Below, one piece after another: positions 1 through 13,762 of a stretch of 64,000 bases of DNA (the first letter of the stretch is position 1; the number at the start of each line of letters is the position of its first letter). The DNA lies in NCBI RefSeq assembly GCF_001894865.1, contig NZ_BCXA01000033.1, forward strand, positions 1 through 64,000, written 5' to 3'. The position numbers and the translations under genes were made by a program. Origin of the DNA: Rhodococcus maanshanensis NBRC 100610. GTDB lineage: Bacteria > Actinomycetota > Actinomycetes > Mycobacteriales > Mycobacteriaceae. The notes under the pieces were generated by a model. That model was not told the origin of the DNA, did not search any database, and saw nothing but the letters and a program-made list of their open reading frames with translations.

Positions 1-5
1 CCCTC

Positions 6-629
6 GTGTCTGTCTACTCGCTGCCTGAACTGCCCTACGACTACGCCGCCCTCGAGCCGCACATCTCCGGCAAGATCATGGAACTGCACCACGACAAGCA
101 CCACGCCGCCTACGTCGCAGGCGCCAACGCCGCACTCGACAAGCTCGCCGAACTCCGCGCCGCCGACGCCGTCGCCCCCGTGGTCAACCTGCACGAGAAG
201 AACCTCGCCTTCCACCTCGGCGGCCACACCAACCACACCGTCTTCTGGAACAACCTCAGCCCCGACGGCGGCGACAAGCCCGAAGGCGAACTCGCCGCAG
301 CCATCGACGACCAGTTCGGCGGCTTCGACGCCTTCCGCACCCACTTCAACGCCAACGCCAACGCCATCCAGGGCTCCGGCTGGTCCATCCTCGCCTGGGA
401 CTCCATCGGCCAGCGACTGATCATCGTCCAGCTCTACGACCAGCAGGGCAACATCTCCATCGGCCTCACCCCCCTGCTCATGCTCGACATGTGGGAGCAC
501 GCCTTCTACCTCGACTACCAGAACGTCAAGGGCGACTACGTCAACGCCTTCTGGAACATCGTCAACTGGAACGACGTCGCCGCCCGCTTCGACCGCGCCC
601 GCACCCAGACCGCAGGCCTCATCGTCTAA
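6..629 (+). CDS. sodA: Superoxide dismutase (Mn/Fe family)
   Basis: Superoxide dismutase converts superoxide to oxygen and hydrogen peroxide. The 207-residue protein is full length for the family. The four metal ligands are visible: His28 in the LHHDKHH helix, His77 in GGHTNH, and Asp161 and His165 in DMWEH. The residue aligned with His145 of the M. tuberculosis Fe enzyme is Gln146 (YDQQ), as in manganese-type mycobacterial enzymes, so manganese is the likelier metal (inference from the family). The GTG start lies at the window edge, so its upstream control is not visible. There is no signal peptide; the tuberculosis homologue is exported without a classical one. A strong hairpin follows the stop. 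Confidence 0.97.
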
Positions 630-695
630 GCGGATCCCCCGCCCGTGCGTGAGTCGTACCCCGATCGGGGTGCACATCACGCACAGTTCGACCCC

Positions 696-728
696 CTCCG
701 CCGCGCCCGACCTCCGGGCGCGGCGGAG
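696..728 (+). terminator. Rho-independent-like hairpin after sodA
   Basis: A perfect 14-bp GC-rich stem (696-709 with 715-728) with a 5-nt loop lies 67 nt after the sodA stop. There is no long T-run, which is common in actinobacterial terminators. Confidence 0.7.
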
Positions 729-760
729 TCGTTTCCGGCAAACGGTCGTATCGTTGAGGG

Positions 761-1603
761 ATGGACACCCTCGTCGAGGGTCTGACCTTTCCCGATGGGG
801 CACGCTGGCACGACCGGCACCTGTGGTTCTCGGACACGCACGCCGGTGAGGTGCTGGCGTACGACCCGGTGACGGGCGCGCTCAACACCATGGCCGAGGT
901 TCCCGGCCGACCCGCGGGCCTGGGCTTCCTCCCCGACGGACGGCTGCTGATCGCCTCCACCCGCGACCTGCTCGTGCTGCGCAGGGAATCGGACGGCACC
1001 CTGGTCGTGCACGCCGACCTCTCCGGCATCGCCACCTGGTACCTGCACGACATGTGTGTCGACCGGTTCGGACGCGCGTACGTCGGAAACGCCGGGGACG
1101 GCAGCGATCCCCCGCGGCCGCCGCGGCCCGCCGACCTGGCGATGATCGAACCCGACGGCACCGTCCACGACGTCGCGACCGCGATGGTGCTGGCGGGCGG
1201 CATGGTCGTGACCTCCGACGGCACCACCCTCATCGTCGCCGAGAGCCGATCCACCCCCGGCCGGCTGACCGGCTTCACCATCGAACCCGACGGCGGCCTC
1301 GAACAGCGACGGGTGATCGCCGAGTTCGACGCCACCGTGCAACCCGACGGCCTCGCGATCGACGCCGAGGACGGCGTCTGGGTCGCCTCCCCGTTCGGTG
1401 ACGAGATCTTCCGCGTCGACGCCGACGGCGCCATCACGGACCGCCTGTCCGCGCCCAACCCCTACTCGCTCGCGCTGGGCGGGCCCGACGGTCGCGACCT
1501 GTTCGTCTGCACCGCCCAAACGTGGGTTCCCGAGGAAGCGGAACGAGACAGGGGCGGCGCCGTACGGCGGGTCCGGGTGCGGGTTCCCGCCCCGCAAGCG
1601 TAG
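761..1603 (+). CDS. SMP-30/gluconolactonase/LRE family protein
   Basis: A 280-residue beta-propeller lactonase-like protein. The N-terminus (EGLTFPDGARWHDRHLWFSD) is the usual SMP-30 opening blade with the metal-ligand Glu. The later segments WYLHDMCVDRFGRAYVGN and PDGLAIDAEDGVWVA carry the Asn/Asp positions that bind the divalent metal in this family. The members known hydrolyse sugar or other lactones; the substrate here cannot be told. The ATG is preceded almost directly by GAGGG, so the ribosome binding site spacing is poor and leaderless initiation is possible. It appears monocistronic. Confidence 0.9.
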   Translation: MDTLVEGLTFPDGARWHDRHLWFSDTHAGEVLAYDPVTGALNTMAEVPGRPAGLGFLPDGRLLIASTRDLLVLRRESDGTLVVHADLSGIATWYLHDMCVDRFGRAYVGNAGDGSDPPRPPRPADLAMIEPDGTVHDVATAMVLAGGMVVTSDGTTLIVAESRSTPGRLTGFTIEPDGGLEQRRVIAEFDATVQPDGLAIDAEDGVWVASPFGDEIFRVDADGAITDRLSAPNPYSLALGGPDGRDLFVCTAQTWVPEEAERDRGGAVRRVRVRVPAPQA

Positions 1604-1618
1604 GACGTCCCACGGCCG

Positions 1619-1650
1619 GGCTGGCACTCCATCCCGCTTGTCTGCCAGCC
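1619..1650 (+). terminator. Weak inverted repeat after the SMP-30 gene
   Basis: An 8-bp perfect inverted repeat (GGCTGGCA with TGCCAGCC) with a 16-nt loop lies 15 nt after the stop. It could be a weak terminator. Confidence 0.35.
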
Positions 1651-1720
1651 GAGTTCGGCGCATCCTGGAGGTGTCACGGGATGCGCTCCCGGGGCACCGT
1701 CGCGCGGAAGGGGGACGGAC

Positions 1721-2248
1721 GTGAACCAGCACGGACACATCGGCGTCTCGCCGTTCCATGCCGCCGGGGCCCTTCGCGGGTTCATCATCTCCGGCCGGTG
1801 GCCGGACACCACCAAGGAGTGGGCTCAGCTCCTGGTGTTCGCGGTCCGGGTCGCCTGCGTACCCGGATTACTCCCCACCTCAACGGTTTTCGGCGCTCAC
1901 GAAGACGTTCCCGAGGACCCGGAACCGGGCACCGTCGGTCTCGTGGTCGCAGAGGGCCCGGTGATCGGCGAATCCGCCCTCACGCCAGGGTGTTTCGCGG
2001 AGCATCAACCGCCCGCCCTGCTGGTCCTGCACCCGCCGTCAGAGACCATGCCGTCTCTACCCGAGTGCGTGGGCGCGGCCTCGGGCTGCCTGTTGCTGCC
2101 GGGCGTGCCGCATCTCGGACTGGACCACCGGGCGACCTGGGTGGAGGCGGACGCCGACGGCACCGTCACGTCCCTGGTCAGCCGGATGAGCCTCGATCCC
2201 AACACCGACCCCGACACCGCCGTTTTGGCCATGCTGCTTGCCTCCTGA
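1721..2248 (+). CDS. Hypothetical protein, 175 residues
   Basis: I do not recognise this family. It starts at GTG behind AAGGGGG. The protein appears soluble, has no signal peptide or obvious membrane segment, and is acidic in the middle (HEDVPEDPEPG). It contains two Cys residues in ECVGAASGC. Codon use is normal for the window (GC at third positions), which supports a real gene. It lies 285 bp before the Mn exporter and is probably transcribed separately, because the riboswitch of the exporter begins 83 nt after its stop. Confidence 0.7.
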   Translation: MNQHGHIGVSPFHAAGALRGFIISGRWPDTTKEWAQLLVFAVRVACVPGLLPTSTVFGAHEDVPEDPEPGTVGLVVAEGPVIGESALTPGCFAEHQPPALLVLHPPSETMPSLPECVGAASGCLLLPGVPHLGLDHRATWVEADADGTVTSLVSRMSLDPNTDPDTAVLAMLLAS

Positions 2249-2330
2249 CGCGGACCGGAAGAACAAAGTTCGGTCTCCCAAACTTGTTGTGCGCTTTGCG
2301 ATCTCGTTGACCTGGGGTAGTCTTACGCCT

Positions 2331-2456
2331 AGCGAAGGGGAGTAGCCCCCAATCGAGCAGTCGACATACTGGTCAGCATCGTCAGATCCGATGCGCCCGG
2401 CTGCCCGAACCGGCGCCGTCGTTCACGCGACAGGCACGGTGGGCGAGACCTTCGGC
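2331..2456 (+). promoter_or_regulatory. yybP-ykoY-type manganese riboswitch aptamer
   Basis: Three conserved yybP-ykoY marks are visible in order. GGGGAGTAGC lies at 2337-2346, TCGTCA lies at 2379-2384 in a GCATCG/CGATGC hairpin, and GAGACCTTCGG lies at 2445-2455. The outer P1 stem forms between CGAAGG (2333-2338) and CCTTCG (2449-2454). The gene downstream is a Mn exporter of the family usually controlled by this riboswitch. Binding of Mn2+ is established for the class; for this copy it is inferred. Confidence 0.9.
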
Positions 2457-2530
2457 TGTCGACGTCCACACGTCGGCGGCCGGAGGAACAGTTCCCAACA
2501 TCCTCCGAAACCAGATAACGGAGGAGGTCC
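2454..2530 (+). promoter_or_regulatory. Riboswitch expression platform with repeated SD-like segments
   Basis: A 12-bp hairpin including G-U pairs (2454-2465 with 2470-2481) begins at the last base of P1. The 7-mer CGGAGGA occurs at 2481-2487 and again at 2519-2525, where it is the Shine-Dalgarno. TCCTCCG at 2501-2507 can pair perfectly with either copy. This is the arrangement of a sequestrator and anti-sequestrator, so translation of the exporter is the likely controlled step. Confidence 0.65.
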
Positions 2531-2532
2531 GC

Positions 2533-3237
2533 ATGCTTGCCGCGTTGCTGCTCAGCTTCGGCGTCATCTTCGTCGCCGAACTCGGCGACAAATCCCAGCT
2601 CATGGCGATGACGTTCGCGCTGCGCTACAAGTGGTGGGTGGTGATCGGCGGCATCACCGTCGCCACCACCGTCGTGCACCTGGTCTCGGTCGGCGTCGGC
2701 CACTACCTCGGCGTGGCCATTCCCACGAACCTGATCAGCACCCTCGGCGGCATCGCCTTCGTGATCTTCGCCCTGTGGACCCTTCGCGGCGACAGCCTCA
2801 GCGACGACGAGCAGAACAAGGCCTCCCGGGTCGGCGCCTCGGCGTTCCTCGCGGTCGCCTCGGCCTTCTTCCTGGCCGAGCTCGGCGACAAGACCATGCT
2901 CGCCACCATCACGCTGGCCGCGGACAACGACTGGGTCGGCGTGTGGATCGGCTCGACGGTCGGCATGGTCGCGGCCGACGCTCTCGCGATCGTCGTCGGC
3001 GCCGTGCTCGGCAAGCACCTGCCCGAGCGGTTCATCCAGCTCGCCGCCGCGACCCTGTTCTTCGTCTTCGGCGTGATGCTGCTGCTCCAGGGCCTGTTCC
3101 CGGGCAGCGCGGCCGGCCCGATCGCCGGCGGCGCGATCCTCGCGGTCGCGGTCGTGGCGGGCGTCGTCCGCTGGGCGCGCTCGAGAACAATCGCCCCCGC
3201 ACCGGTCGAGGAGACCCGCGAGCCCCTCGACCGGTGA
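2533..3237 (+). CDS. TMEM165/GDT1 family manganese exporter
   Basis: A 234-residue membrane protein with about six to seven helices in two homologous halves. Each half carries the family signature E-x-G-D-K-[ST]: ELGDKSQLMA near residue 16 and ELGDKTMLAT near residue 116. These acidic motifs form the cation site. Members export Mn2+ (MneA/MntX type) or exchange Ca2+/Mn2+ with H+. The start is fixed by GGAGGAGG seven to eight bases upstream. The riboswitch in its leader supports a role in manganese efflux. The short basic tail after the last helix is cytoplasmic. It converges on the next gene with only 18 bp between stops. Confidence 0.93.
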   Translation: MLAALLLSFGVIFVAELGDKSQLMAMTFALRYKWWVVIGGITVATTVVHLVSVGVGHYLGVAIPTNLISTLGGIAFVIFALWTLRGDSLSDDEQNKASRVGASAFLAVASAFFLAELGDKTMLATITLAADNDWVGVWIGSTVGMVAADALAIVVGAVLGKHLPERFIQLAAATLFFVFGVMLLLQGLFPGSAAGPIAGGAILAVAVVAGVVRWARSRTIAPAPVEETREPLDR

Positions 3238-3255
3238 CGGGGTAGACCGCTGTCG

Positions 3256-4008
3256 CTAACTGCCAGAACCACCCAGCTCAGGCATGACATCGATCGTGGG
3301 CGAAGGCAACCACTCCGTGACCGGGACCCCCGTACCGATGAAACCCACCGCCGCCTCCCCGTCACGCACGAGCTCGGTCGCCTGGTAGTTGACCTTCACG
3401 TGGACCATTCCGGATGAGAAACCGCCCCCCGCGCGTTCGACGCTCGGGATGTCCCAACCCCCTGCAGGGGGCGTGGCGGTGACGTCGCCGGTGACGGGGT
3501 CGACCGTGAACGTCGCGTCGAGCGCGGTCACGCTGCCACTGTCCACGGCTCCTGCCTCATCGTGCGTGTAGGCCGTGACGTCACCGCCGGCGAAGACGAA
3601 GCCATCCGGGTTTTTGATCGTGGCGCTCGTGACCACCTTGTCGGGCCGCGAGGGGTGTAGGCCGCCGTTGGGCATCGCGAACGCGAAGAACTGTGCATCG
3701 AGCTGGACGTTTTCGCCCCGTTTGAGGCTGTGGGGCCCACTGAAGACCGCCCCCAACTCGCCGCGATTCGAGCTGTGGAACGTACCGTTGTCGCAGGGCA
3801 TCGGGTCTGGATCGCCTGGCACACAGGTGGCGTGGTCCGTCGAGGTACTTCCCAGCATGGTTAGAGCCAAGAAATTGATCATCGGTTCTGCCGATTCGGG
3901 GGCCGTGGATGCCGCGGCCGCGGTACCCAGCCCCGCGCCCCCGGCGACAACGGTCAGCGCCGCGAGCACCGCCCCACCCGCACGCGCCAGCTGTCCAGCA
4001 ATTGCCAT
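3256..4008 (-). CDS. Secreted protein, large paralogue 1 of the array
   Basis: A 250-residue secreted protein of unknown function. The ATG at 4008 is chosen because AAGGAG lies 10 nt upstream; the open frame runs further up but has no ribosome binding site there. Residues 1-32 form a signal peptide (basic start, GGAVLAALTVVAGGAGL, Ala-rich cleavage site). The mature part is beta-rich and carries DPVTGDVTATPPAGGWDIPS, almost identical to a segment of the next gene, so the two are paralogues. Cys pairs in CVPGDPDPMPC suggest a disulfide. The tail is Gly/Ser-rich. Upstream it carries the shared array promoter element. Confidence 0.8.
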   Translation of the reverse strand: MAIAGQLARAGGAVLAALTVVAGGAGLGTAAAASTAPESAEPMINFLALTMLGSTSTDHATCVPGDPDPMPCDNGTFHSSNRGELGAVFSGPHSLKRGENVQLDAQFFAFAMPNGGLHPSRPDKVVTSATIKNPDGFVFAGGDVTAYTHDEAGAVDSGSVTALDATFTVDPVTGDVTATPPAGGWDIPSVERAGGGFSSGMVHVKVNYQATELVRDGEAAVGFIGTGVPVTEWLPSPTIDVMPELGGSGS

Positions 4009-4076
4009 TGACCTGATCTCCTTCGATCGTGGAACACCGGCGAGCCCTGTACCCACCCCGCCCCGGTAGCCCGCCA

Positions 4077-4147
4077 AGAGTAAGCGGCGAGACTGGTGCC
4101 CGGCATCGGAATTGGTGTGCCAGTTTGCGCAGGTCAAAGCGTTAAAC
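4077..4147 (-). promoter_or_regulatory. Array promoter region 1 (motif A plus -10-like box)
   Basis: Motif A on the plus strand is CAGGTCAAAGCGTTAAAC at 4130-4147. A -10-like TACTCT (minus strand) lies at 4077-4082, with 47 bp between them. It lies 69 bp upstream of the ATG. Confidence 0.65.
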
Positions 4148-4273
4148 ACTGTCGAGAACGGTCCACTTCCGGGCCAGACGAGGAATCCCCCACCGCCCCT
4201 CGACCATCAGGCAGGGTGAACCGCAGCGAGACCACCACCGCCACGCCGCCCAGGGGCGGCGCGGCGTTGGCAA

Positions 4274-4924
4274 TCAGTTTCCTGAGCTGCCGAGGCCACC
4301 GATACCCGATGTGACTCGGGTTGCCCCCGTCGCCAGCCACCCCTCCGACGCCGGGACGTCGGTGCCGGTGAACGTCACCCCGGTGGTGCCAGCGAGATAC
4401 GACTCGACCACCTTGTAGCGCAAGCCGACAAACAGGGACCCGCTGAGGGAGCCGGCATCGGTTGCCGACGTCGGGATGGCCCAGCCACCTGCGGGCGCCG
4501 TTACCGTCACATCCCCCGTGACGGGATCCACCACCGCGGTCGAGTCCAGCTTCGCATCCGCCGCGAATCGCGGGCGGGAAGTCACCTCGGCCCCGACGAA
4601 TTCAAACCCTCGCGGAGCATGGTGAGTGACGCTCATTACTGCCAACCCGGGTATGCCATCCCGAGCAGTGAAGCTCGGGTAGTACGTGACCTCACTGCCC
4701 ACTTCAGCCTTGGCGGGACCCTGGTATCCCAGCAGAATGTTGCCTTTCGCGCCGTGATCCAGGAAGGCCTCGCCGCATAGCTCTTCGTAGAGCCCGGAGC
4801 ATGAGCTTCCGAACCCTCCGCCAGGCGCGCCCCCCGCGACGCCCGCACCCATCGTCGCCCCACCTACGACAACGGCCAGCGCCGCGAGCACCGAACCACC
4901 CCTACGCACCAGCTGTCCGACCAT
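4274..4924 (-). CDS. Secreted protein, large paralogue 2 of the array
   Basis: A 216-residue secreted protein of unknown function. The ATG at 4924 follows GGAG with 10 nt between. The N-terminus (MVGQLVRRGGSVLAALAVVV) matches the signal peptide of the other array members, with cleavage near residue 33. The segments DPVTGDVTVTAPAGGW and GTTGVTFTGTDVPASEGWL align with the neighbouring 3256-4008 product. Two Cys residues follow the signal peptide (SSCSGLYEELCG). The mature domain resembles an Ig-like/adhesin beta-sandwich in pattern, but no named family is assigned. The C-terminus is GGLGSSGN, close to the GGSGS end of its neighbour. Confidence 0.8.
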   Translation of the reverse strand: MVGQLVRRGGSVLAALAVVVGGATMGAGVAGGAPGGGFGSSCSGLYEELCGEAFLDHGAKGNILLGYQGPAKAEVGSEVTYYPSFTARDGIPGLAVMSVTHHAPRGFEFVGAEVTSRPRFAADAKLDSTAVVDPVTGDVTVTAPAGGWAIPTSATDAGSLSGSLFVGLRYKVVESYLAGTTGVTFTGTDVPASEGWLATGATRVTSGIGGLGSSGN

Positions 4925-4984
4925 CGACAATGTCTCCTTCACTGTTGAGAGAACAGGCCCACCGCCCGCCCCACGAACTCGCCA

Positions 4985-5054
4985 AGAGTAAGGGGCGAAA
5001 CGGCGCGCCGCGTCGGAATCGCGTATCGCTTTTGCGCAGGTCAAAGCGTTAAAC
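4985..5054 (-). promoter_or_regulatory. Array promoter region 2 (motif A plus -10-like box)
   Basis: Motif A is at 5037-5054, identical to copy 1 over 18 bp and flanked by the same GCGC and ACTGTC. The -10-like TACTCT is at 4985-4990, 46 bp away. Confidence 0.65.
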
Positions 5055-5170
5055 ACTGTCCCGAAACGGTCCCCGCCGCGCCGGGGCTCCCGAGCACGAG
5101 GCCGCCAGCCGCAAACCGAAGATTCGACGGATACTGGAAGGGTCTCGCAGGCACCCACAGGAGGGGTGAC

Positions 5171-5563
5171 ATGACCGAACGAGTTCCCCCGGAACCGATC
5201 GCGGCCGCCAAAGTGGTGCTGCTGCAGACCCGCAAACGGGACGGCAGCTGGGTCGACACCCCCGTGAACATCGCGGTCGACGGAACCCACGCGTATTTCC
5301 GGACACCCGGCAGGGCCTCGAAGAACAAGCGGCTGCGGAACTTCCCCGACGTGCGGATGTGGCCCTGCACGTGGTCGGGCAAGCCGACCGGCGAGGAGGC
5401 GGATGCGACCGCGCACCTGCTCACCGGCGCCCAGGCCGACGCCGCCGCCCAGGCCATCGACCGCCGCTTCCCGATCCTGCAGCGTGTCATGGTGCGGGCG
5501 GCGCACAAGGTCATGCGCACCCCCACGCTCCACTACGAGCTGACAGACTTCCACGCGCCGTGA
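5171..5563 (+). CDS. PPOX-class F420-dependent oxidoreductase, Rv2061-like
   Basis: A 130-residue split-barrel flavin/deazaflavin-binding protein. The order of motifs fits the Rv2061-type family: KVVLLQTRKRDGSWVDTPV, then the FRTPGRASKNKRLRN loop that contacts the cofactor phosphate, then MWPCTWSGKPTGEEADATA. Such proteins use F420 (or FMN) to reduce small substrates; the substrate is unknown. The ATG follows AGGAGG at a good distance. The DksA-like gene starts 58 nt after the stop in the same direction, so the two may be co-transcribed. They interrupt the secreted-protein array. Confidence 0.85.
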   Translation: MTERVPPEPIAAAKVVLLQTRKRDGSWVDTPVNIAVDGTHAYFRTPGRASKNKRLRNFPDVRMWPCTWSGKPTGEEADATAHLLTGAQADAAAQAIDRRFPILQRVMVRAAHKVMRTPTLHYELTDFHAP

Positions 5564-5621
5564 ACGGGACCGGGTCACGGCCCGACGGAAGCATCGGCTG
5601 CGCCGCGGCGTTGTACCGGAC

Positions 5622-5969
5622 ATGACCAAGTCCGCCGCTGCCACCGCCCGCGGCAGGATCGCGGCGGAACGTGCCGCGACCGTGCATCGGATCGAATCGC
5701 TGAACGCCCGATTGAACGACATCCTCGATGGCTCGGAGCTGAGCACAAACGACGACGAGCACGATCCCGAGGGCTCGACCATCGCGTTCGAACGCGCCCA
5801 GGTCGCATCGCTGCTCGGGGACGCGCGGCAGGACCTCGAGGATCTCGACGCCGCCCTGCGCCGGGTCGACGACGGCAGCTACGGGATATGCGTGAAGTGC
5901 GGGCAATCGATCGGCGCCGAGCGGCTCGACGTGCTGCCCGCCGCATTGCGCTGCATCGACTGCTCCTGA
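5622..5969 (+). CDS. TraR/DksA family C4 zinc-finger protein
   Basis: A 115-residue protein with a coiled-coil N-terminal region (residues about 10-85, acidic NDDEHDPEGS in the middle) and a C-terminal zinc finger, CVKCGQSI...RCIDCS, with all four Cys present. DksA/TraR proteins enter the secondary channel of RNA polymerase. Small actinobacterial members such as this are poorly characterised, and the acidic tip residues of DksA are not clearly conserved. It ends at a bidirectional terminator facing the next array gene. Confidence 0.88.
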   Translation: MTKSAAATARGRIAAERAATVHRIESLNARLNDILDGSELSTNDDEHDPEGSTIAFERAQVASLLGDARQDLEDLDAALRRVDDGSYGICVKCGQSIGAERLDVLPAALRCIDCS

Positions 5970-6010
5970 CACGGCGCCCGTCGGCCCTAGGCCGTCGCGG
6001 CAGCAATCGA

Positions 6011-6047
6011 GGTGGTGGTCGCGCCCGGTTCGGCCGCGACCACCACC
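6011..6047. terminator. Bidirectional hairpin between convergent genes
   Basis: A perfect 13-bp stem (6011-6023 with 6035-6047) with an 11-nt loop stands between the DksA-like gene and the minus-strand gene ending at 6097. Confidence 0.75.
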
Positions 6048-6096
6048 GTGGATCAGGAGCAGTTGCCGACGATCGATGCCACCATCGCCCTCCCCG

Positions 6097-6384
6097 TCAC
6101 GGGAGGAACGGACAATCCCGGTCCTGTCTGAGCGAGCATGTCTGCCCACTAGTGACGCTGTCGGAATCTGACGAGCCGGCGGCGACCTTCATCAGATCAG
6201 TAAACAACAGCACAGGGGCGGAGACGACACCGTTCAGGATGTCGAAGGAGCCGCTGGCGAGTCCGCCCACACTGCCGGGGGCTTCCTCGGCCGAGGCGGT
6301 GCCCCCACCGAGGGCCAGACCGCCGCCGAGCAGTGCCGCGGCAACAAGGACGGACGCGCCACGGCGCGCCAGAGTTCGAAACAT
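6097..6384 (-). CDS. Small secreted protein, array member 3
   Basis: A 95-residue secreted protein. Residues 1-33 are a signal peptide nearly identical to other members (MFRTLARRGASVLVAAALL, then GGGTASA and cleavage before EE). The mature part is about 60 residues, Ser/Val/Gly-rich, and ends in CSLRQDRDCPFLP. The C-terminal two-Cys DCP ending is shared with two other array members. A GAGGG site precedes the ATG. Unlike the other six members, motif A is not present in the 136 bp upstream; only a degenerate form of the second block (CCGCGCCAGAATTACACGAA on the plus strand) remains. Function unknown. Confidence 0.8.
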   Translation of the reverse strand: MFRTLARRGASVLVAAALLGGGLALGGGTASAEEAPGSVGGLASGSFDILNGVVSAPVLLFTDLMKVAAGSSDSDSVTSGQTCSLRQDRDCPFLP

Positions 6385-6520
6385 GAAGATTCCCTCGTTT
6401 CAAGTAGTGATGACCCGGGCGGCCACACCCCATCGGAGCGCCAACCGGCCGCGCCAGAATTACACGAAATAGCTTGTTCCACAACAATATTTGATGATCA
6501 CGCCGATCATCCCGAGATGA

Positions 6521-7135
6521 TCAGCTGAGGGGGACCATCAGGTTGCCGCCCGTCACCGTGCCCACCGGTGGCGACACAACCGGAGTGAAGCCGGGCCCCT
6601 CGAGGGTGAACCCGCTGACACCGGCGCCTTCGATCAACTTCTGAGAATGGGCCGCTGTGTAGGTGAGGTCGAACTGGAGTCCGTCGCCAACTCTCACCGG
6701 GTTTCCGGAAGGATCGGTGAAGGTGCCGGTGCGAGCCTCCGGATCATGCACGTGATCGAGCACGATCGGGTCGAGGCGGTCCTGATTGCCGGCAGTCACA
6801 TGACTGATCCGATTGGTGGTGACACCGGTCAACGCGAAATTGAGCGGCTTGTTGTGGACCAGCTTGGTGATTCCCCGGTCAGGGTCGCCCACATTCTTGA
6901 CGGTGATTCGAAAGGTCGCCGGATCGCCCCCGACGGCCCTTTCGGGGTACCGATAGGTGATCTCGAAGCCTTCGTGGGTCAACATCTGTTCCAGGTGCTT
7001 TTCGCTCGGGCATACCGAGCCGCATCCGGCGCTCACCTCCGCACCCGAGGTGCCCATACCGATCGTGAGCCCGCCGGTGGCGATCGCCGCGACGGCAAGG
7101 ATCGATGCGCTGCGGCGCATCATGTTGTTGGACAA
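6521..7135 (-). CDS. Secreted protein, array member 4 (divergent)
   Basis: A roughly 204-residue secreted protein. I place the start at TTG 7135 because GGAG lies 7 nt before it; ATG 7156 (7 residues longer) and ATG 7123 have no well-placed site. The signal peptide is shorter in similarity to the others (MMRRSASILAVAAIATGGL). The mature part has CGSVCPSEK near its start (likely disulfide), then a beta-rich domain with TFRITVKNVGDPDRG, which is reminiscent of the DUF11/CARDB-type repeats of surface proteins. No firm family. It has the array promoter element upstream. Confidence 0.75.
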   Translation of the reverse strand: MSNNMMRRSASILAVAAIATGGLTIGMGTSGAEVSAGCGSVCPSEKHLEQMLTHEGFEITYRYPERAVGGDPATFRITVKNVGDPDRGITKLVHNKPLNFALTGVTTNRISHVTAGNQDRLDPIVLDHVHDPEARTGTFTDPSGNPVRVGDGLQFDLTYTAAHSQKLIEGAGVSGFTLEGPGFTPVVSPPVGTVTGGNLMVPLS

Positions 7136-7202
7136 TATGTTTCTCCATTTCGACATGCGATGACCGGGCGCCACAGCCGCCGGACACCCCCCCGACCGCG
7201 CC

Positions 7203-7272
7203 AGAATAGGACGAATCGGTCAGTCCCGCAGCCGAATCGAGCCGCGACTCTCCGCAGGTCAAAGCGTTAAAC
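7203..7272 (-). promoter_or_regulatory. Array promoter region 3 (motif A plus -10-like box)
   Basis: Motif A is at 7255-7272 and the -10-like TATTCT at 7203-7208, 46 bp apart. The -10-like box lies in the longer conserved block TTCGTCCTATTCTGGCGCGG (minus strand). Confidence 0.65.
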
Positions 7273-7343
7273 CCGACCCGGGCGACAGCACATCGCAGGA
7301 CGACGAGCGCGGCCGTGAGCACCTTCCACTCAGTAGATGAATC

Positions 7344-7370
7344 CGCCCGCCCGGGAACCCCGGGCGGGCG
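7344..7370 (-). terminator. Terminator hairpin of array member 5
   Basis: A perfect 12-bp stem (7344-7355 with 7359-7370) with a 3-nt loop lies 17 nt after the stop at 7387. Similar GGAACCC-loop hairpins follow two other members. Confidence 0.75.
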
Positions 7371-7386
7371 ACCGAAACGGCGTGCA

Positions 7387-7743
7387 CTATCCCGAAGTGC
7401 CACCGCCATCGGGCATGGAGGTACCCGGAGGGCGCCCGTTGATCCAGTCGTCCCAGGCAATCGATCCGATCGGGGTGCCCGGAGGCGGGCAGTTGGCCGC
7501 GCATCCCGTCCATACGTTGCCGGGCTCGACGGAGCCGACCGCCCCGAGCGCGGAATCAAGACCCAGGAGGGAGCCCAAGGCGACGGCCAGGAGGGCGAGG
7601 TCGACGACGCCGCCGACGGAGCCCACCGGGGCGGAGGAGGATTCCGCGGCGGATGCCGCGCCCCCGCCGAGGCCCAGACCACCGCCGAGCACAGCCGCGG
7701 CAACAAGGACGGACGCGCCTCGGCGCGCCAGTGTACGAGACAT
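7387..7743 (-). CDS. Small secreted protein, array member 5
   Basis: A 118-residue secreted protein. The start ATG 7743 has GAAGGA upstream. The signal peptide MSRTLARRGASVLVAAAVLG is shared with members 3, 6 and 7. The mature part has a hydrophobic stretch (GVVDLALLAVALGSLLGL), a Cys pair (GCAANCPPPGTP), and AWDDWINGRPPGTSMPDG. The last segment resembles PYDAWVNNGSIDTGSAPSG of member 6. The C-terminus is Gly/Ser-rich. Function unknown. Confidence 0.78.
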   Translation of the reverse strand: MSRTLARRGASVLVAAAVLGGGLGLGGGAASAAESSSAPVGSVGGVVDLALLAVALGSLLGLDSALGAVGSVEPGNVWTGCAANCPPPGTPIGSIAWDDWINGRPPGTSMPDGGGTSG

Positions 7744-7809
7744 GAAGATTCCTTCGTTCCACGTGATGACGGGACGGCCAACACCCACGGAACGCCCCCC
7801 GACCGCGCC

Positions 7810-7879
7810 AGCATAGGACGAATCGACCAGGTCTACGGCCGAACGGAAACTCGACTTTCCGCAGTTCAAAGCGTTAAAC
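7810..7879 (-). promoter_or_regulatory. Array promoter region 4 (motif A plus -10-like box)
   Basis: Motif A (CAGTTCAAAGCGTTAAAC, one change) is at 7862-7879 and the -10-like TATGCT at 7810-7815, 46 bp apart. Confidence 0.65.
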
Positions 7880-7948
7880 GCGAACCAGGAGAAGCACGCC
7901 TCGACAACACCGGGCACGAACACGAGGACCCGGCGATCAGCACACGAA

Positions 7949-7978
7949 ACCGCCCGCCAGGGAACCCGGGCGGGCGGT
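7949..7978 (-). terminator. Terminator hairpin of array member 6
   Basis: A 14-bp stem with one mismatch (7949-7962 with 7965-7978) lies about 85 nt after the stop at 8063. Its sequence is related to the hairpin at 7344. Confidence 0.65.
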
Positions 7979-8062
7979 ACACGATCGACTGGGTGCGGCT
8001 GTTCCACGCCGTGACAAGCGGGAACCGGATCGCGCCCCTACAACCATGCGAGAGCGCCTCGT

Positions 8063-8350
8063 CTAAAGCGGGCAGTCCTCGTCCCGCGGGGTACAAAAAA
8101 CAGTGCCGGATGGGGCGCTGCCGGTGTCTATGGACCCGTTGTTGACCCAGGCGTCATAAGGTATCTGGCTGATCGTCACCAGGGAGCCGATCGCATCGCC
8201 CACATTCCCAAGTAATACGTCCACGGCTGCTGAGCCGGTGATGGGGAGTTCATCGGCCGACGCCGTGCCCGCTCCGATGACCAGACCGCCGCCCAGCAGA
8301 GCAGCAGCGGCAAGGACGGACGCGCCACGGCGCGCCAGAATTCGCAACAT
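8063..8350 (-). CDS. Small secreted protein, array member 6
   Basis: A 95-residue secreted protein. The ATG at 8350 follows AAGGGG with 7 nt between. The signal peptide is MLRILARRGASVLAAAALL, with cleavage after ASA near residue 32. The mature part has a hydrophobic stretch (AAVDVLLGNVGDAIGSLVTI), a DAWVNN segment shared with member 5, and ends in FCTPRDEDCPL. The terminal C-x6-C-P pattern matches members 3 and 7. Function unknown. Confidence 0.8.
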   Translation of the reverse strand: MLRILARRGASVLAAAALLGGGLVIGAGTASADELPITGSAAVDVLLGNVGDAIGSLVTISQIPYDAWVNNGSIDTGSAPSGTVFCTPRDEDCPL

Positions 8351-8420
8351 TCAAATCCCCTTCGTTCGAAGTTTGATGACCGGGGCGGCCACAACCCACG
8401 GAACGCCCCCCGACCGCGCC

Positions 8421-8491
8421 AGCATAGGACGAAGCGGCCAGGCCGGACAGCCGAATCGTGCATGGAATTTCCCCAGGTCAAAGCGTTAAAC
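8421..8491 (-). promoter_or_regulatory. Array promoter region 5 (motif A plus -10-like box)
   Basis: Motif A is at 8474-8491, identical to the consensus, and the -10-like TATGCT at 8421-8426, 47 bp apart. Confidence 0.65.
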
Positions 8492-8562
8492 ACGACCGGG
8501 TGACGACTCACCGTCCATCACGACGAGGATGACCACTAAGGCTCGACGATCAACACACGACA

Positions 8563-8591
8563 CCGCCCGCCCAGGAACCCTGAGCAGGCGG
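8563..8591 (-). terminator. Terminator hairpin of array member 7
   Basis: A 13-bp stem with two mismatches (8563-8575 with 8579-8591) lies after the gene ending at 8677. It is a decayed copy of the other array hairpins. Confidence 0.55.
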
Positions 8592-8676
8592 CATCGCGGC
8601 CGAATGGATGCGGCTGTTCCATGCCGCGACCGGGAACCGGCCGCGCGCCCGCGCAACCATGCGAGAAGTGCCTCGA

Positions 8677-8940
8677 TTAGATCGGGCAGTCCGCGCCCTG
8701 CCCACGACACGAAAAGGACACGCTGCCGTCATCTTCGGAGCTGCCGGCGGCGGCGGTGAGCACGGAAGAGAAGGCCCTGGCCATCTCGGAAGTGAGGATA
8801 TTGATCATCTCGACGGAGCCGCTCGCGCTTCCTGGGACTTCCTCGGCCGAAGCCGTGCCCCCGCCGAGGGCCAGACCGCCGCCGAGCACAGCCGCGGCGA
8901 CAAGGACGGACGCGCCTCGGCGCGCCAGGCTTCGCAACAT
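8677..8940 (-). CDS. Small secreted protein, array member 7
   Basis: An 87-residue secreted protein. The signal peptide MLRSLARRGASVLVAAAVLG ends in GGGTASA before EEVPG, almost the same as member 3. The mature part of about 55 residues has VEMINILTSEMARAFSSVL, an acidic Ser patch (GSSEDDGS) also seen in member 3 (GSSDSDS), and ends in SCRGQGADCPI. AAGGGG precedes the ATG. Its upstream motif A is the most diverged copy. Function unknown. Confidence 0.8.
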   Translation of the reverse strand: MLRSLARRGASVLVAAAVLGGGLALGGGTASAEEVPGSASGSVEMINILTSEMARAFSSVLTAAAGSSEDDGSVSFSCRGQGADCPI

Positions 8941-9010
8941 TCAAATCCCCTTCGTTCGAAGTGTGATGACCGGGGCGGCCACAACCCACGGAACGCCCCC
9001 CGACCGCGTC

Positions 9011-9080
9011 AGACTAGGGCCGGCCGGCCGGCGCCGCAGCGAAATCGAGAATCGGCATCTTCGCAGGTCAACCGTTATAC
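9011..9080 (-). promoter_or_regulatory. Array promoter region 6 (diverged motif A plus -10-like box)
   Basis: A diverged motif A (CAGGTCAACCGTTATAC) is at 9064-9080 and the -10-like TAGTCT at 9011-9016, 47 bp apart. Confidence 0.5.
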
Positions 9081-9219
9081 GCAACGACTAGCGTCGGCCG
9101 GAACGGTCAGGCTGGCACACTGTTCGGTGAACCGTCGTTAACCAGACTCACGACCGGGCGCTATCGTTCAGGTCACTACCGGTCGGCCAACGGTGGCCGC
9201 CAGAAAAGAGGATCGAACA

Positions 9220-9987
9220 GTGGAACTCCAGGGAACCGCGGCACTGGTCACCGGTGCGGCCTCCGGTCTCGGCGCCGCCACCGCCAAGCGCTTCGCCGAC
9301 GCAGGCGCCACCGTCTTCGGGCTGGATCTGGCCCAGTCCATCGAGCGCGCGGGCGACAGCGTCCCGGCCGGCGTCACCCTCATCCCCACCGATGTCACCA
9401 GCGGCGACGAGGTCCAGGCCGCCGTCGACCAGATCGTCGCCTCCGGCGTGCCGCTGCGCACCGTCGTGAACTGCGCGGGCGTCGGCTGGGCCGGCCGCAT
9501 CCTGTCCAAGAACGGCCCGCACGACCTGGAGCTGTTCCGCACGGTCATCACCGTCAACCTGCTCGGCACCTTCAACGTGATGCGCCTGGCCGCCGACGCG
9601 ATCGCCAAGACCGACACCGTCGACGAGTCCGGCCAGCGCGGCGTCGTCATCAACACCGCCTCCGTCGCCGCATTCGAGGGCCAGATCGGCCAGATCGCCT
9701 ACTCCGCCTCCAAGGGCGGCGTCCACGGCATGACCGTCCCTGCCGCTCGCGACCTGGCGCAGTTCGGCATCCGCGTCAACACCATCGCCCCCGGCATCAT
9801 CGACACCCCGATGCTCGCGGGCGTCACCGACGAGTACCGCAAGGGCCTCGAGGCCGGCGTGCCGTTCCCGTCCCGCCTGGGCAACCCCTCCGAGTACGCG
9901 CAGCTCGCGCAGATGATCGTCGAACACGACTACCTCAACGGCGAGACCATCCGCATGGACGGCGCGCTCCGGATGGCGCCGCGCTAG
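9220..9987 (+). CDS. SDR family oxidoreductase, 3-hydroxyacyl-CoA dehydrogenase-like
   Basis: A 255-residue short-chain dehydrogenase. The start GTG 9220 follows AGAGGA; an in-frame GTG at 9193 has no site. The Rossmann motif TGAASGLG is at residues 11-18, NCAG replaces the usual NNAG, and the catalytic Tyr and Lys are in YSASKGG. The ending (VNTIAPGIIDTPML...PFPSRLGNPSEYAQL...NGETIRMDGALRM) is typical of type II 3-hydroxyacyl-CoA dehydrogenases (HSD17B10-like) that act in fatty acid, branched amino acid or steroid side-chain oxidation. The Asp at the end of beta-2 (GLDLA) indicates NAD+ rather than NADP+. Substrate unknown. Confidence 0.9.
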   Translation: MELQGTAALVTGAASGLGAATAKRFADAGATVFGLDLAQSIERAGDSVPAGVTLIPTDVTSGDEVQAAVDQIVASGVPLRTVVNCAGVGWAGRILSKNGPHDLELFRTVITVNLLGTFNVMRLAADAIAKTDTVDESGQRGVVINTASVAAFEGQIGQIAYSASKGGVHGMTVPAARDLAQFGIRVNTIAPGIIDTPMLAGVTDEYRKGLEAGVPFPSRLGNPSEYAQLAQMIVEHDYLNGETIRMDGALRMAPR

Positions 9988-9999
9988 GCAGCTCCGCTG

Positions 10000-10058
10000 C
10001 CCGTGCGTGGTCGGCGGGTCCCAGGACTCGTCAACCGCGCACGGGCGCCGCAGGCGCC
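10000..10058. terminator. Possible bidirectional terminator
   Basis: An outer 8-bp inverted repeat (CCCGTGCG 10000-10007 with CGCACGGG 10038-10045) and a compact GGCGCC/GGCGCC hairpin at 10044-10058 fill the gap between two convergent genes. Confidence 0.4.
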
Positions 10059-11689
10059 TACAGTTCCGAGGCCAGCGGGGTCTCCGCCGCCGCGCGCTCG
10101 GTCATCCACTCCCGCAGCACCCGCGTCGCCTGCACGTCGTCCTCGTTGTAGACGAACAACCGCTCGCGCTGTTCGAGATCCGGCTCGTGGTCGTAGCCGA
10201 CGGCATCCCGGTACCAGCTCATCGACGCCTCGCCGCCTGCGTCCGCGTCCCGCCAATTGAACCCGGCGACGGGCGCAATCTTCTTGAGTCCCTTACCATT
10301 CGGGCAGACAAACTGGTCGCTCACCGCCTGGTAGACATCCACCCAGTCCGGGCTGTCGATGAAGGCGCGGATCTGCGCGACCGTCGGGATGCCCGGCATC
10401 CCGGCGAACCGGGTCGCCGAGTCGAGCAGCCACTTGTCTTCCGCCGCACGGGAATAGCAATAGGCCGCGAAGGTCTTGCCAGCGGCGAGGGTCTGCTCCC
10501 GCACCCCCATCAGCCACCCCCAGAACTCCGCGAAAGACCTACCCTCGTCCCGGGTCGGCAACGGGTCCCAGGTGACGAACGGCCGGTACGGCTGGGTGAC
10601 GCCGTCCGCGGTCAGCAGCGTGCCCCACAGGTAGGCGCCGTGCTCCTGGTAGCTCTCCATGTCCACATCGACCTCGACGTCGGCCCGGCGCACCGTGACC
10701 TCGGGCTGCCGCCGCACCAGCGGGACCCCGCCCAGCCAGGCCTTCGCGATCACCACCGTGTCCTCGAACCCGTTGCCCTGCCACTCCTCCGGCGCCGGTC
10801 CGTCCCAGGCCGCGAGGTCGTCGATGGTGTAGACCCCGGCCGCGCGCAGCGTCTCGGCCCGCGAGCCCGTCGCCACCAGGCTGACGTCCCGCGCGGCAGT
10901 CAGGTTCTCCTTGCACCGCGACCACCAGGGGCAGGACCGGCACTCGCCGATCTGCGACGGGGAGGTGAAGCGGTCGCCACGCGCGACGGCGAGCCGGTCG
11001 GCGAACCGCTCGTCGTAGACGTCCATCACCGCGGCCAGGTCGTGCACCAGGAAACGCTCGCCGCCGTACCCGATGACACCGCCGAGCATCGACGGGCTCG
11101 CGACGCCCTGCGCCTGGAGCATGCGCTGCAGGTGGGCCAGGCGGAGCTGATCGCGGAGCTGGGCGCGCACCTTCCGGTCCGGGTCCACGCTCGGCGCCCA
11201 GTCGTCCAGCCCGGAGGTGACCGCGCCGCTGCCCGGGTCGGTGACCTTGTGGTTCACCACGATGGCCGGGATGTATCCCCCACCGTCGGCGTCCCGGATC
11301 AACAGCTCCGCCCGCCCGCGCCTGCCGGTGTCGAACTCGAGCGGCAACACCGCGCCCCAGATCCGGTCCGCACCCTCCGCGCACGCCCGCAGGGTCGCCG
11401 CGGCCCGCTCGCGCGTCGGGCCGGACTGATCGATGAGCACCCAGCTGTGACCGCCCGGCGCCATCAACCGCCGGAGCATGTCCTCCCGGTGCGACTGGGC
11501 CGATTCCCGGCGCTGCTGGACGCCGATGTCCTCCGGCGCCGAGGCGATCAGCTCGGGATACGCCGAATCCAGGTGGACCCGGTGCCGGCACGTGGTGAGC
11601 GTCCTGGGGTCGATGAGCACCGACCGAGTGCCGTTACGGCCCGGCTCGGCGTCCTGGTGCGGATCCCGGGGGTCCTGCGAAGAGTTCAC
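10058..11689 (-). CDS. TM0106 family RecB-like putative nuclease
   Basis: A roughly 543-residue protein matching the TM0106-type family of RecB-like nucleases. The N-terminal half has the PD-(D/E)xK-type region with a Cys cluster (CRSCPWWSRCKENL) of the kind that binds an iron-sulfur cluster in Cas4/AddB-like nucleases. The C-terminal half resembles an RNase H-fold exonuclease domain (FVTWDPLPT, YCYSRAAEDKWLL, NEDDVQATRVLREWM). The frame stays open to 12010 but overlaps the next gene; GTG 11689 before NSSQDPRDP is the best available start though it lacks a clear ribosome binding site. Cellular role unknown. Confidence 0.82.
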   Translation of the reverse strand: MNSSQDPRDPHQDAEPGRNGTRSVLIDPRTLTTCRHRVHLDSAYPELIASAPEDIGVQQRRESAQSHREDMLRRLMAPGGHSWVLIDQSGPTRERAAATLRACAEGADRIWGAVLPLEFDTGRRGRAELLIRDADGGGYIPAIVVNHKVTDPGSGAVTSGLDDWAPSVDPDRKVRAQLRDQLRLAHLQRMLQAQGVASPSMLGGVIGYGGERFLVHDLAAVMDVYDERFADRLAVARGDRFTSPSQIGECRSCPWWSRCKENLTAARDVSLVATGSRAETLRAAGVYTIDDLAAWDGPAPEEWQGNGFEDTVVIAKAWLGGVPLVRRQPEVTVRRADVEVDVDMESYQEHGAYLWGTLLTADGVTQPYRPFVTWDPLPTRDEGRSFAEFWGWLMGVREQTLAAGKTFAAYCYSRAAEDKWLLDSATRFAGMPGIPTVAQIRAFIDSPDWVDVYQAVSDQFVCPNGKGLKKIAPVAGFNWRDADAGGEASMSWYRDAVGYDHEPDLEQRERLFVYNEDDVQATRVLREWMTERAAAETPLASEL

Positions 11690-11879
11690 GATGACGAGAT
11701 TATGGTCCGTCGCACCGACAACCCGCACCGCGCCTACCGGGACCGGAGCCCGCGGAGCGACCGGACCGCGCCGGAGCGGGCCCTGCCGGACTCGCCGCCG
11801 TGGCCCGGGGCGGTCGCGGATAGGCTGTCGGGGACGAGGTGTGCCGAAGCTCGAGCGCCAAGAATGAGGGGCCTTACGC

Positions 11880-12497
11880 ATGGGTTTGTTCAGGAAACGT
11901 AAGACACGCGCGACCCGGCGTGCCGAGGCGAAGGCCCTCAAGCACAAGGCGAAGGTCGAGGCGAAGCTCGGCGCCCGCAACGATCGCAAGAAGATGCGCA
12001 CCGAGGCCAAGTCGGCGAAGAAGGTCGAGAAGGCTCAGCTCGCGACGCTGAAGGCGCAGGAGAAGGCCGCCACCCGCGGCAAGCTCAGCGTCGGCCAGGT
12101 CCGCAAGTACCTCGGCATCGCCCGGCTGCTGACGCCGGTGCTCGCCCCCCTCGTCTACCGCGGCGCCACCGTGCTGCGCGCCCAGCTCGACCAGCAGCGC
12201 GCCAACAAGATGGGTATCGCCGCCGAGGAGCTGGGCACCTACACCGGGCACGGCGCCCACCTCAGCGCCCGGATCGCAGGCGCCGAGCGGTCCGCGAACG
12301 CCATCGCCGCCCAGTACCCCGACCCCGAGACCACCCGGTTCACCGGCGCCGTCCTCGGTCGGCTGGCCGAGCTCAACACGGCCGTCCGCGCCGCCGAGCA
12401 GATGCCGGTCCAGCGCCGCAGGGCCGCCCACCACGCGATCTCGGCCGAGCTCGACGGCGTCGAGGCCGACCTGCTCGCCCGCCTCGGCGTCCGCTGA
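11880..12497 (+). CDS. Conserved actinobacterial protein (DUF6474-like)
   Basis: A 205-residue protein. Residues 1-70 are extremely Lys/Arg/Ala-rich and probably a long helix or coiled coil (RKRKTRATRRAEAKALKHKAKVE). The rest is Ala-rich helical with VRKYLGIARLLTPVLAPLVY, a possible membrane-associated helix. I recognise it only as a family found throughout Nocardia and relatives, probably DUF6474. The ATG lies a short way after a -10-like TAGGCT at 11821-11826. It runs divergently from the nuclease gene. Confidence 0.75.
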   Translation: MGLFRKRKTRATRRAEAKALKHKAKVEAKLGARNDRKKMRTEAKSAKKVEKAQLATLKAQEKAATRGKLSVGQVRKYLGIARLLTPVLAPLVYRGATVLRAQLDQQRANKMGIAAEELGTYTGHGAHLSARIAGAERSANAIAAQYPDPETTRFTGAVLGRLAELNTAVRAAEQMPVQRRRAAHHAISAELDGVEADLLARLGVR

Positions 12498-12520
12498 CCC
12501 CAGGCTCGACCACTCCGAAG

Positions 12521-13054
12521 ATGCCGACCGCCCGCCCCGCCCACCCCGCCCGCCTGCGCGCCGCGGCGGTCGGGGCGCTCACCGCGGCGCTCTCCGTGGC
12601 CGGCCATGGGGTCGCGGGCGGCGGGTACCCGGACTCCTCGACCCTGACGCTGCTGGTGCTGTGCTGCGCCGCCGTCGGCGCGCTCACCGGCAGCCTGCGC
12701 GGCGGGCGGGTCGCGCTGCTCGGGGCGCTGGCCGCCGGGCAGCTCGTCGGGCATCTCGCGCTCTCGACCGCCCTCACCGCGCACCAGTTCCACGCCCCGG
12801 AGCTCTCCCCCCGCGGGCTGACGATGCTCGCCGCCCACACCGTCGCGACGGCGCTGTGTGCCGCACTGATCCTGGCCGCGGAGGCCGTGTACGGCCCGAT
12901 CACCCGGGTGCTGCGGTCCGTCCTGCGTCGCTGGAATCCGCTGCCGCGCACCAACTTCTCGCTTCGCACCGCGCCGACAGACCCGATCGCGCCGGTGACA
13001 CTGCTGTACTTCTGCATCTCGAGACGGGGACCGCCCGCGGCGGTACCCGCATAG
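12521..13054 (+). CDS. Small membrane protein of the copper operon
   Basis: A 177-residue protein with four or five hydrophobic helices in residues 10-130 (AAAVGALTAALSVAGHGVAGG, LTLLVLCCAAVGALTGSL, VALLGALAAGQLVGHLAL, LAAHTVATALCAALILAAEAV). It carries several intramembrane His residues. Nocardia and Streptomyces often place such a short protein before ycnI, so a role in copper handling is suggested by position only. It starts 24 nt after the previous stop, which suggests co-transcription. Confidence 0.75.
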   Translation: MPTARPAHPARLRAAAVGALTAALSVAGHGVAGGGYPDSSTLTLLVLCCAAVGALTGSLRGGRVALLGALAAGQLVGHLALSTALTAHQFHAPELSPRGLTMLAAHTVATALCAALILAAEAVYGPITRVLRSVLRRWNPLPRTNFSLRTAPTDPIAPVTLLYFCISRRGPPAAVPA

Positions 13055-13102
13055 CGGACTCGGCGACCCGAGCCCGCCCTCCCTCTCGAGAGAAAGAACC
13101 CC

Positions 13103-13762
13103 ATGACCACCCTCATTTCCCGCGCCCTCCTCACGGTCGGCGCCACCGGCGGTGTCCTGCTGCTCGGCACCGGACTCGCCTCCGCTCACGTCTCCGTCAG
13201 CGCCCCCGGCGCCGAGCAGGGCGGCTACACCGTCCTGACCTTCAAGGTGCCCACCGAGTCGGAGACCGCGGGCACCACCAAGCTGACGGTGGCGCTGCCC
13301 AATCTGGCTTCCGCCCGCACCGAGCCGATGCCCGGCTGGACGTCGCAGGTCACCAAGGACGCCGCCTCCGGCGAGGCCACCTCGGTCACCTGGACCGCCG
13401 ATCCCGGCGTCAGCGTCGGACCCGGCCAGTTCCAGCAGTTCCTGCTGTCCACGGGACCGCTGCCGGAGCAGGACGAGGTGTCCTTCGCCGCCACGCAGAC
13501 CTACAGCGACGGCCAGGTCGTGAACTGGGACCAGCAGCCCGGCCCCGACGGCAGCGAGCCCGACAAGCCGGCGCCCGCCCTCGCGCTGGCCCCCGCGTCG
13601 GAGTCCGAGGACGGCCACGGCGCTGCGACCGCTTCCGCCGCCATCAGCGACGACGACGGCGTCGACACCACGGCCCGTTGGCTCGGCGGCATCGGCCTGG
13701 TGCTCGGCGCGCTCGGCGCCGCGCTCGGCGTCGGCGCGACCGTCCGCGGGCGGCGCTCATGA
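13103..13762 (+). CDS. YcnI family copper-binding membrane protein (DUF1775)
   Basis: A 219-residue protein. It has a signal peptide (residues 1-27, ending GLASA), a mature N-terminus beginning with His (HVSVSAPGAEQGGYTV), a DUF1775 domain to about residue 150, a variable linker, and one C-terminal membrane helix (WLGGIGLVLGALGAALGVGA). In B. subtilis YcnI the N-terminal His and a Trp/Glu form a Cu(II) site; His28 and Trp90 (PGWTSQV) are candidates here. AGAGAAAG precedes the ATG. Its stop overlaps the copC start by ATGA, so translation is coupled. Confidence 0.93.
   Translation: MTTLISRALLTVGATGGVLLLGTGLASAHVSVSAPGAEQGGYTVLTFKVPTESETAGTTKLTVALPNLASARTEPMPGWTSQVTKDAASGEATSVTWTADPGVSVGPGQFQQFLLSTGPLPEQDEVSFAATQTYSDGQVVNWDQQPGPDGSEPDKPAPALALAPASESEDGHGAATASAAISDDDGVDTTARWLGGIGLVLGALGAALGVGATVRGRRS

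What the first reader, a model, noticed from the sequence alone, without database searches (positions are those of the whole stretch)
3256..9080. Array of seven paralogous secreted proteins, six under one conserved upstream element at fixed distance
Seven minus-strand genes share a signal peptide (x-LARRGASVL type) but have quickly diverging mature parts. Six of them carry CAGGTCAAAGCGTTAAAC (motif A, plus-strand spelling) at 4130, 5037, 7255, 7862, 8474 and, diverged, 9064. In every case a -10-like TAnnCT lies 46 or 47 bp from it on the gene side. No conserved -35 exists. This is what an activator site upstream of a weak promoter looks like, with about four and a half helix turns between. Motif A itself holds two GTYAAA half-sites 8 bp apart. 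I know of no described regulon with this element, so the array may be a co-regulated set of exported peptides.
Basis: partly seen in the sequence, partly recalled or inferred. Interest (0 to 1): 0.85.

Follow-up and report, generated by a model that had tools for sequence, protein, structure and literature searches.

The report
Shared promoter for secreted-protein gene array
A small group of soil Rhodococcus species carries a variable cluster of genes for exported proteins, nearly all behind the same unusual two-part promoter, which suggests that an undescribed activator controls them together.

Summary
Six of seven minus-strand secreted-protein genes carry the element 46-47 bp from a TAnnCT -10, without a -35. 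The element is longer than reported: GTTTAACGCTTTGACCTGCGnAAA. A second conserved spot, nTTC, is locked to the -10, its first T 28 bp upstream. If that -10 is used, the two lie near -76 to -53 and -41 to -37.

A promoter profile built from 24 sites gives 39 places with E<=0.03 in the six held genomes of the genus. All 39 precede a member of the same secreted families, 15 of 15 non-training ones included. Of 301 genomes of the taxonomic family, only three outside the genus match, weakly and not before such a gene. Shared descent of the promoter blocks explains part of this, but conservation comes in islands: flanks 0.44-0.49, element 0.85, mature parts about 0.5.

Best reading: a genus-specific regulon of exported proteins under activator-dependent promoters, laid out like LysR-type promoters. 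The activator is not identified. The proposed half-sites are not better than chance.

The parts
3256..4011 (-). g1: long-class secreted protein (Ig-like), 251 aa
   Evidence: element upstream
4274..4933 (-). g2: long-class secreted protein, 219 codons as taken; mature part modelled as all-beta sandwich (pLDDT 88.9)
6097..6384 (-). g3: short-class secreted protein, 95 aa; no element upstream; 137 bp behind g4
6521..7123 (-). g4: long-class secreted protein, about 200 aa
7387..7743 (-). g5: short-class secreted protein, 118 aa
8063..8350 (-). g6: short-class secreted protein, 95 aa
8677..8940 (-). g7: short-class secreted protein, 87 aa
4061..4147 (-). promoter unit of g1: element, nTTC spot, TACTCT -10
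   Evidence: R1 E 5.3e-16, training site
4969..5054 (-). promoter unit of g2, TACTCT -10
   Evidence: R1 E 3.4e-18, training site
7187..7272 (-). promoter unit of g4, TATTCT -10
   Evidence: R1 E 7.5e-19, training site
7795..7879 (-). promoter unit of g5, TATGCT -10
   Evidence: R1 E 2.9e-17, training site
8406..8491 (-). promoter unit of g6, TATGCT -10
   Evidence: R1 E 9.8e-16, training site
8996..9080 (-). promoter unit of g7, diverged one-base-shorter element, TAGTCT -10
   Evidence: R1 E 7.3e-12, training site
5622..5969 (+). DksA/TraR-type zinc-finger protein gene inside the array; possible co-regulator (speculative)
   Evidence: PF01258 E 4.8e-10; a copy in the array region of all six genomes

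Best explanation
A genus-specific regulon of exported proteins. Most members are separate transcription units with an activator-dependent promoter: a 24-bp asymmetric element at about -76 to -53 in fixed orientation, a weaker second spot (nTTC) at about -41 to -37, no sigma -35, a TAnnnT -10 and a G-rich start. Shown: this architecture, its constraint across paralogues and species, and its tie to two classes of secreted protein. Inferred: that an activator binds both spots, stands in for the missing -35 and recruits RNA polymerase, and that the products (Ig-like sandwiches and short, often Cys-pair proteins) work at the cell surface or outside. The layout is that of LysR-type promoters; an AraC-type or other activator fits as well. 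The array changes by duplication of the promoter-plus-leader block at one locus.
For: All 39 profile hits with E<=0.03 in six genomes precede a family member in the right orientation; 15 of these were not in the profile. Island conservation: flanks 0.44-0.49, element 0.85, nTTC 0.73, -10 0.81, signal peptide 0.86, mature about 0.5; 0.20 bits per column upstream of the element. T at 28 bp before the -10 in 24 of 24 training sites and in 13 of 14 non-training sites where a -10 was called, of 16 looked at. No sigma-70 consensus. Of 35 signature genes, the 4 without the element lie close behind another family gene on the same strand. VirR of R. equi protects -76 to -55 and -51 to -29 (PMC11724031, passages).
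Against: No regulator gene, transcript start or binding data. The promoter blocks are related by descent, so hits are not independent. Six distant long-class homologues, five in the genus, lack the element. G001 has only weak sites (E 0.009 and 0.021). Dyad, direct-repeat and T-N11-A tests are at chance level, which gives no support for a particular regulator family.
Confidence: 0.7

Rival explanations
1. The element is conserved only because the promoter blocks are recent duplicates or are homogenised by gene conversion; it binds nothing.
For: Promoter and leader blocks align at 73-84% between paralogues in the window.
Against: The spacer between element and -10 and the bases upstream have diverged while the element has not; it is kept between species and in long and short classes alike.
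Confidence: 0.07
2. An alternative sigma factor uses TTGACC of the element as -35 and the GATTC spot as -10.
For: TTGACC to CGATTC is about 17 bp in several sites.
Against: nTTC keeps a fixed distance to TAnnnT, not to the element, which shifts over 45-48; this leaves TAnnnT (22 of 24 training sites) unexplained.
Confidence: 0.08
3. The element is a repressor, nucleoid-protein or UP-like site that tunes an otherwise constitutive promoter.
For: The element holds A/T-rich cores; UP-type sites upstream of -40 are recalled.
Against: It ends about 40 bp above the -10, far for a simple repressor, and is more specific than UP elements.
Confidence: 0.12
4. The element is a recombination site that lets cassettes be exchanged, as in integrons.
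For: Array content varies and some cassettes lie on other contigs; GTTTAAC resembles attC cores (recalled).
Against: It lies at a fixed distance from a -10 and in one orientation before genes; no consensus structure.
Confidence: 0.03

Closest known systems
VirR (LysR-type) at the icgA promoter PicgA2 of Rhodococcus equi, in the control of the Vap secreted proteins
   Same: Strong upstream site at -76 to -55 and weaker one at -51 to -29 (PMC11724031, passages), close to the inferred -76 to -53 and -41 to -37 here; a family of paralogous exported proteins (abstract in listing).
   Different: Here the element stands before nearly every secreted gene itself, not before a regulator operon; no dyad above chance; no regulator found. 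Relation to Vap proteins was not tested.
Ig-like beta-sandwich surface domains (cohesin, pilin, DUF11-like)
   Different: 9-18% identity in the seven best rows; no Pfam family in the ten long-class members beyond weak RibLong in three. The fold shows no function.

Membership tests
LysR-type-regulated promoter | recognition site near -65 plus activation site near -35 | tested here: inconclusive
   Two conserved spots at matching distances from the -10, but the transcription start is inferred
LysR-type-regulated promoter | T-N11-A in a partial dyad | tested here: inconclusive
   T-N11-A present, but also in 3161 of 5000 shuffles; best dyad matched by 2421 of 5000
LysR-type-regulated promoter | a cognate LysR-type protein | not tested
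   No regulator searched for by family in this genome; none seen by reading beside the array
AraC-type-regulated promoter | asymmetric site in fixed orientation above the promoter | tested here: inconclusive
   Orientation fixed in 39 of 39; no regulator known; the criterion is recalled
sigma-70 consensus promoter | TTGACA-like hexamer 16-18 bp before the -10 | tested here: not met
   0 found in 3200-9300; columns -23 to -18 are weak and G/C-rich
structured cis-acting RNA | Rfam match or conserved base pairs | tested here: not met
   0 Rfam matches at gathering score in 1-14000; 0 pairs predicted for the 24 units
DUF11 (PF01345) | Pfam score at or above the gathering cut-off | tested here: not met
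   No match in ten long-class mature parts; 19.4 bits against 24.6 in a G029 homologue

The most novel reading that the evidence does not exclude
A promoter-plus-signal-peptide cassette has become a lineage-specific export module: one dedicated, undescribed activator controls it, and unrelated mature parts (short Cys-pair proteins, Ig-like sandwiches, a Big_3_5-like domain) are exchanged behind it at a syntenic hotspot, with the array-borne DksA-like protein as local co-regulator of these -35-less promoters.
Probability: 0.3. Interest if true: 0.75.

Novelty: new variant of a known kind. Interest (0 to 1): 0.56.

Why it matters
It turns anonymous hypothetical genes into a defined, searchable regulon and gives a clean system for finding an unknown activator and its signal. 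Constant promoter and leader with fast-changing cargo recalls toxin and surface-antigen families (recalled), and would let one test how bacteria diversify exported proteins while keeping their control constant.

Tried and rejected
Half-sites: a direct repeat as good occurs in 405 of 3000 shuffles, a dyad as good in 2421 of 5000. RNA element: no Rfam match, no consensus pairs; the 5'-UTR of 12 short-class sites gave -8.9 kcal/mol with few pairs and unlike single folds. Bare 16-mer with up to 2 mismatches: 45 places in six genomes against 11 for the reversed control; of the places outside known units I looked only at window 29107, which lies inside ORFs on both strands. No regulator gene was found with the element upstream, but most of those extra places were not examined. 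Six of the nine profile rows with E 0.18-0.89 were not examined; of the other three, one precedes a partial family member and two do not. Papers: three strings from the element gave 14 papers, 10 listed, none of the ten about it by title; searches on secreted arrays, hypervariable secreted families and the named species showed no such study in the titles listed (12 of 21 listed; 53; 72), listings only. Searches (DksA; LysR sites): listings only. Diphtheria toxin among the fold rows reflects the general sandwich fold; no relation is claimed.

Full report
Check. The plus-strand motif is present at the five stated places with at most one mismatch, and shuffles give none. The sixth, 9064, is a one-base-shorter form. 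In the own genome only one further place lies within two mismatches, on contig C17; it precedes a signal-peptide homologue of g2. Distances to the -10 are 46 or 47 in the window.

Anatomy. Twenty-four sites from five genomes were aligned. Column information shows GTTTAACGCTTTGACCTGCGnAAA, then weak sequence, then nTTC, then TAnnnT and a G-rich start. TAnnnT is met in 22 of 24; one site has TTGTCT and one -10 was placed by hand. The first T of nTTC lies 28 bp before the -10 in 24 of 24 training sites; in 16 other sites a -10 was called for 14, and 13 of these keep the T. A one-base-shorter element recurs in non-training sites, as in g7. Columns upstream of the element carry 0.20 bits on average, rising to 0.4-0.7 in the last six. 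In 12 short-class sites pairwise identity is 0.44-0.49 in the flanks, 0.85 in the element, 0.63 in CGnAAA, 0.73 at nTTC, 0.81 at the -10, 0.86 in the signal peptide and 0.49-0.51 in the mature part. RNA structure is not indicated.

Specificity. A sequence-only profile of these sites (R1), which covers the promoter and not the coding part, was run on the six held genomes of the genus: 48 rows with E<=1. All 39 rows with E<=0.03 precede a family member; 24 are training sites and 15 are not. At least three of the 39 lead copies that look degraded: two frameshifted by reading and one without a usual start. Of nine weaker rows one precedes a partial family member, two do not, and six were not examined. 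In a local run over 32 loci, chosen because of earlier hits or homology, 42 rows gave 41 distinct places. The script recognised 36; reading added L049 (homologue), two degraded copies and one partial copy; one row (E 0.33) fails. Over 301 genomes of the taxonomic family five genus genomes and three outsiders match at E<=0.001 (stricter filters); the outsiders are not followed by such genes. An exact composite pattern occurs in three records of the 84,980-species collection: Rhodococcus sp. RD6.2 (4 places), R. oryzae (1) and R. spelaei (1) (records near the window's own genome may be left out there). The main caveat is that the promoter blocks are themselves related by descent.

Which genes lack it. 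One search listed 36 signature ORFs; I dropped one (L007:4569-4841, antisense to another ORF). Of the 35 left, 31 have a profile hit within 200 bp and four do not; those four lie close behind another family gene on the same strand, g3 being 137 bp behind g4. GC-rich hairpins follow g5, g6 and g7 (z -2.7, -1.6, -3.9) and g2 (z -1.7), while the g4-g3 gap has a weak one (z -0.7). So most genes look like single units, with g3-type genes riding along; this is inferred.

Proteins. The short class keeps LARRGASVL-type signal peptides with short, divergent, often two-Cys mature parts. The long class gives an all-beta model (pLDDT 88.9) that matches cohesin and pilin domains. By sequence it is found in six of six genus genomes and faintly in two of 115 others. 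Pfam gives no family for the seven window proteins and only weak RibLong in three of ten long-class members. One R. spelaei member joins the same leader to a Big_3_5-like domain (E 4e-5, under the cut-off).

Locus history. In all six genomes the array lies between SMP-30-like and GDT1-like genes on one side and an SDR gene on the other; beyond the SDR the recB-like, DUF6474-like and YcnI-like genes are seen in five, and were outside the stretch fetched for G001 (these labels are my reading, no family search). Pieces similar to GDT1 lie between array genes in G002 and G004 and beside the C17 copy, so some duplications took the neighbour along. R. oryzae has transporter genes (by reading) within its array. 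Of eight sister-genus regions, four hold both GDT1 and SDR, 0.6 to 4.1 kb apart, with other genes between by reading; R1 finds nothing in the eight. A DksA-like gene lies in the array region of all six genomes.

Mechanism. Taking the -10 to start at -12, the element covers about -76 to -53 and nTTC -41 to -37. VirR of R. equi protects -76 to -55 and -51 to -29 (PMC11724031, passages). The layout works like a LysR-type promoter, but symmetry tests are at chance level, so membership is not claimed; AraC-type activators fit as well (recalled). An activator-dependent promoter is the most likely reading (0.7); the protein and its signal are unknown. The most novel reading, a promoter-plus-leader cassette with exchangeable cargo and a local DksA-like co-regulator, is not excluded (0.3).

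Noticed in passing
L115, L116, L117, L118, upstream of distant long-class homologues: A shared inverted repeat GGACGCTTGTCC next to a TATAA-like -10 before a conserved homologue without the element, in four genomes; looks like an operator.
   Followed up: partly
window 5622-5969: DksA/TraR-type gene inside the array in all six genomes of the genus; homologues in other genera were found on other contigs than GDT1 where both were hit.
   Followed up: partly
window 5171-5563: Rv2061-type F420-dependent oxidoreductase gene (NCBIfam E 7e-29) in the array; also in the array regions of G003 and G005.
   Followed up: no
L044 8594-9017 and 10440-10814; L042 8183-8398 and 10329-10571; L007 7242-7484: Fragments similar to the neighbouring GDT1-like gene between array genes, traces of past duplications.
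   Followed up: partly
window 8063-8350 and L090 11300-11560: g6 and an R. oryzae gene share the leader and the start of the mature part (LPITGSAAVDVLLGNV) but have unrelated C-termini: a likely chimera.
   Followed up: no
L007 5760-6213, next to the C17 copy: Transposase-like reading frame (my reading) beside the dispersed secreted gene and GDT1 fragment.
   Followed up: no
L122-L124, L126 between GDT1 and SDR: Different genes at the same place in sister genera (kinases, MFS with MarR, deaminase, by reading): an insertion hotspot.
   Followed up: partly
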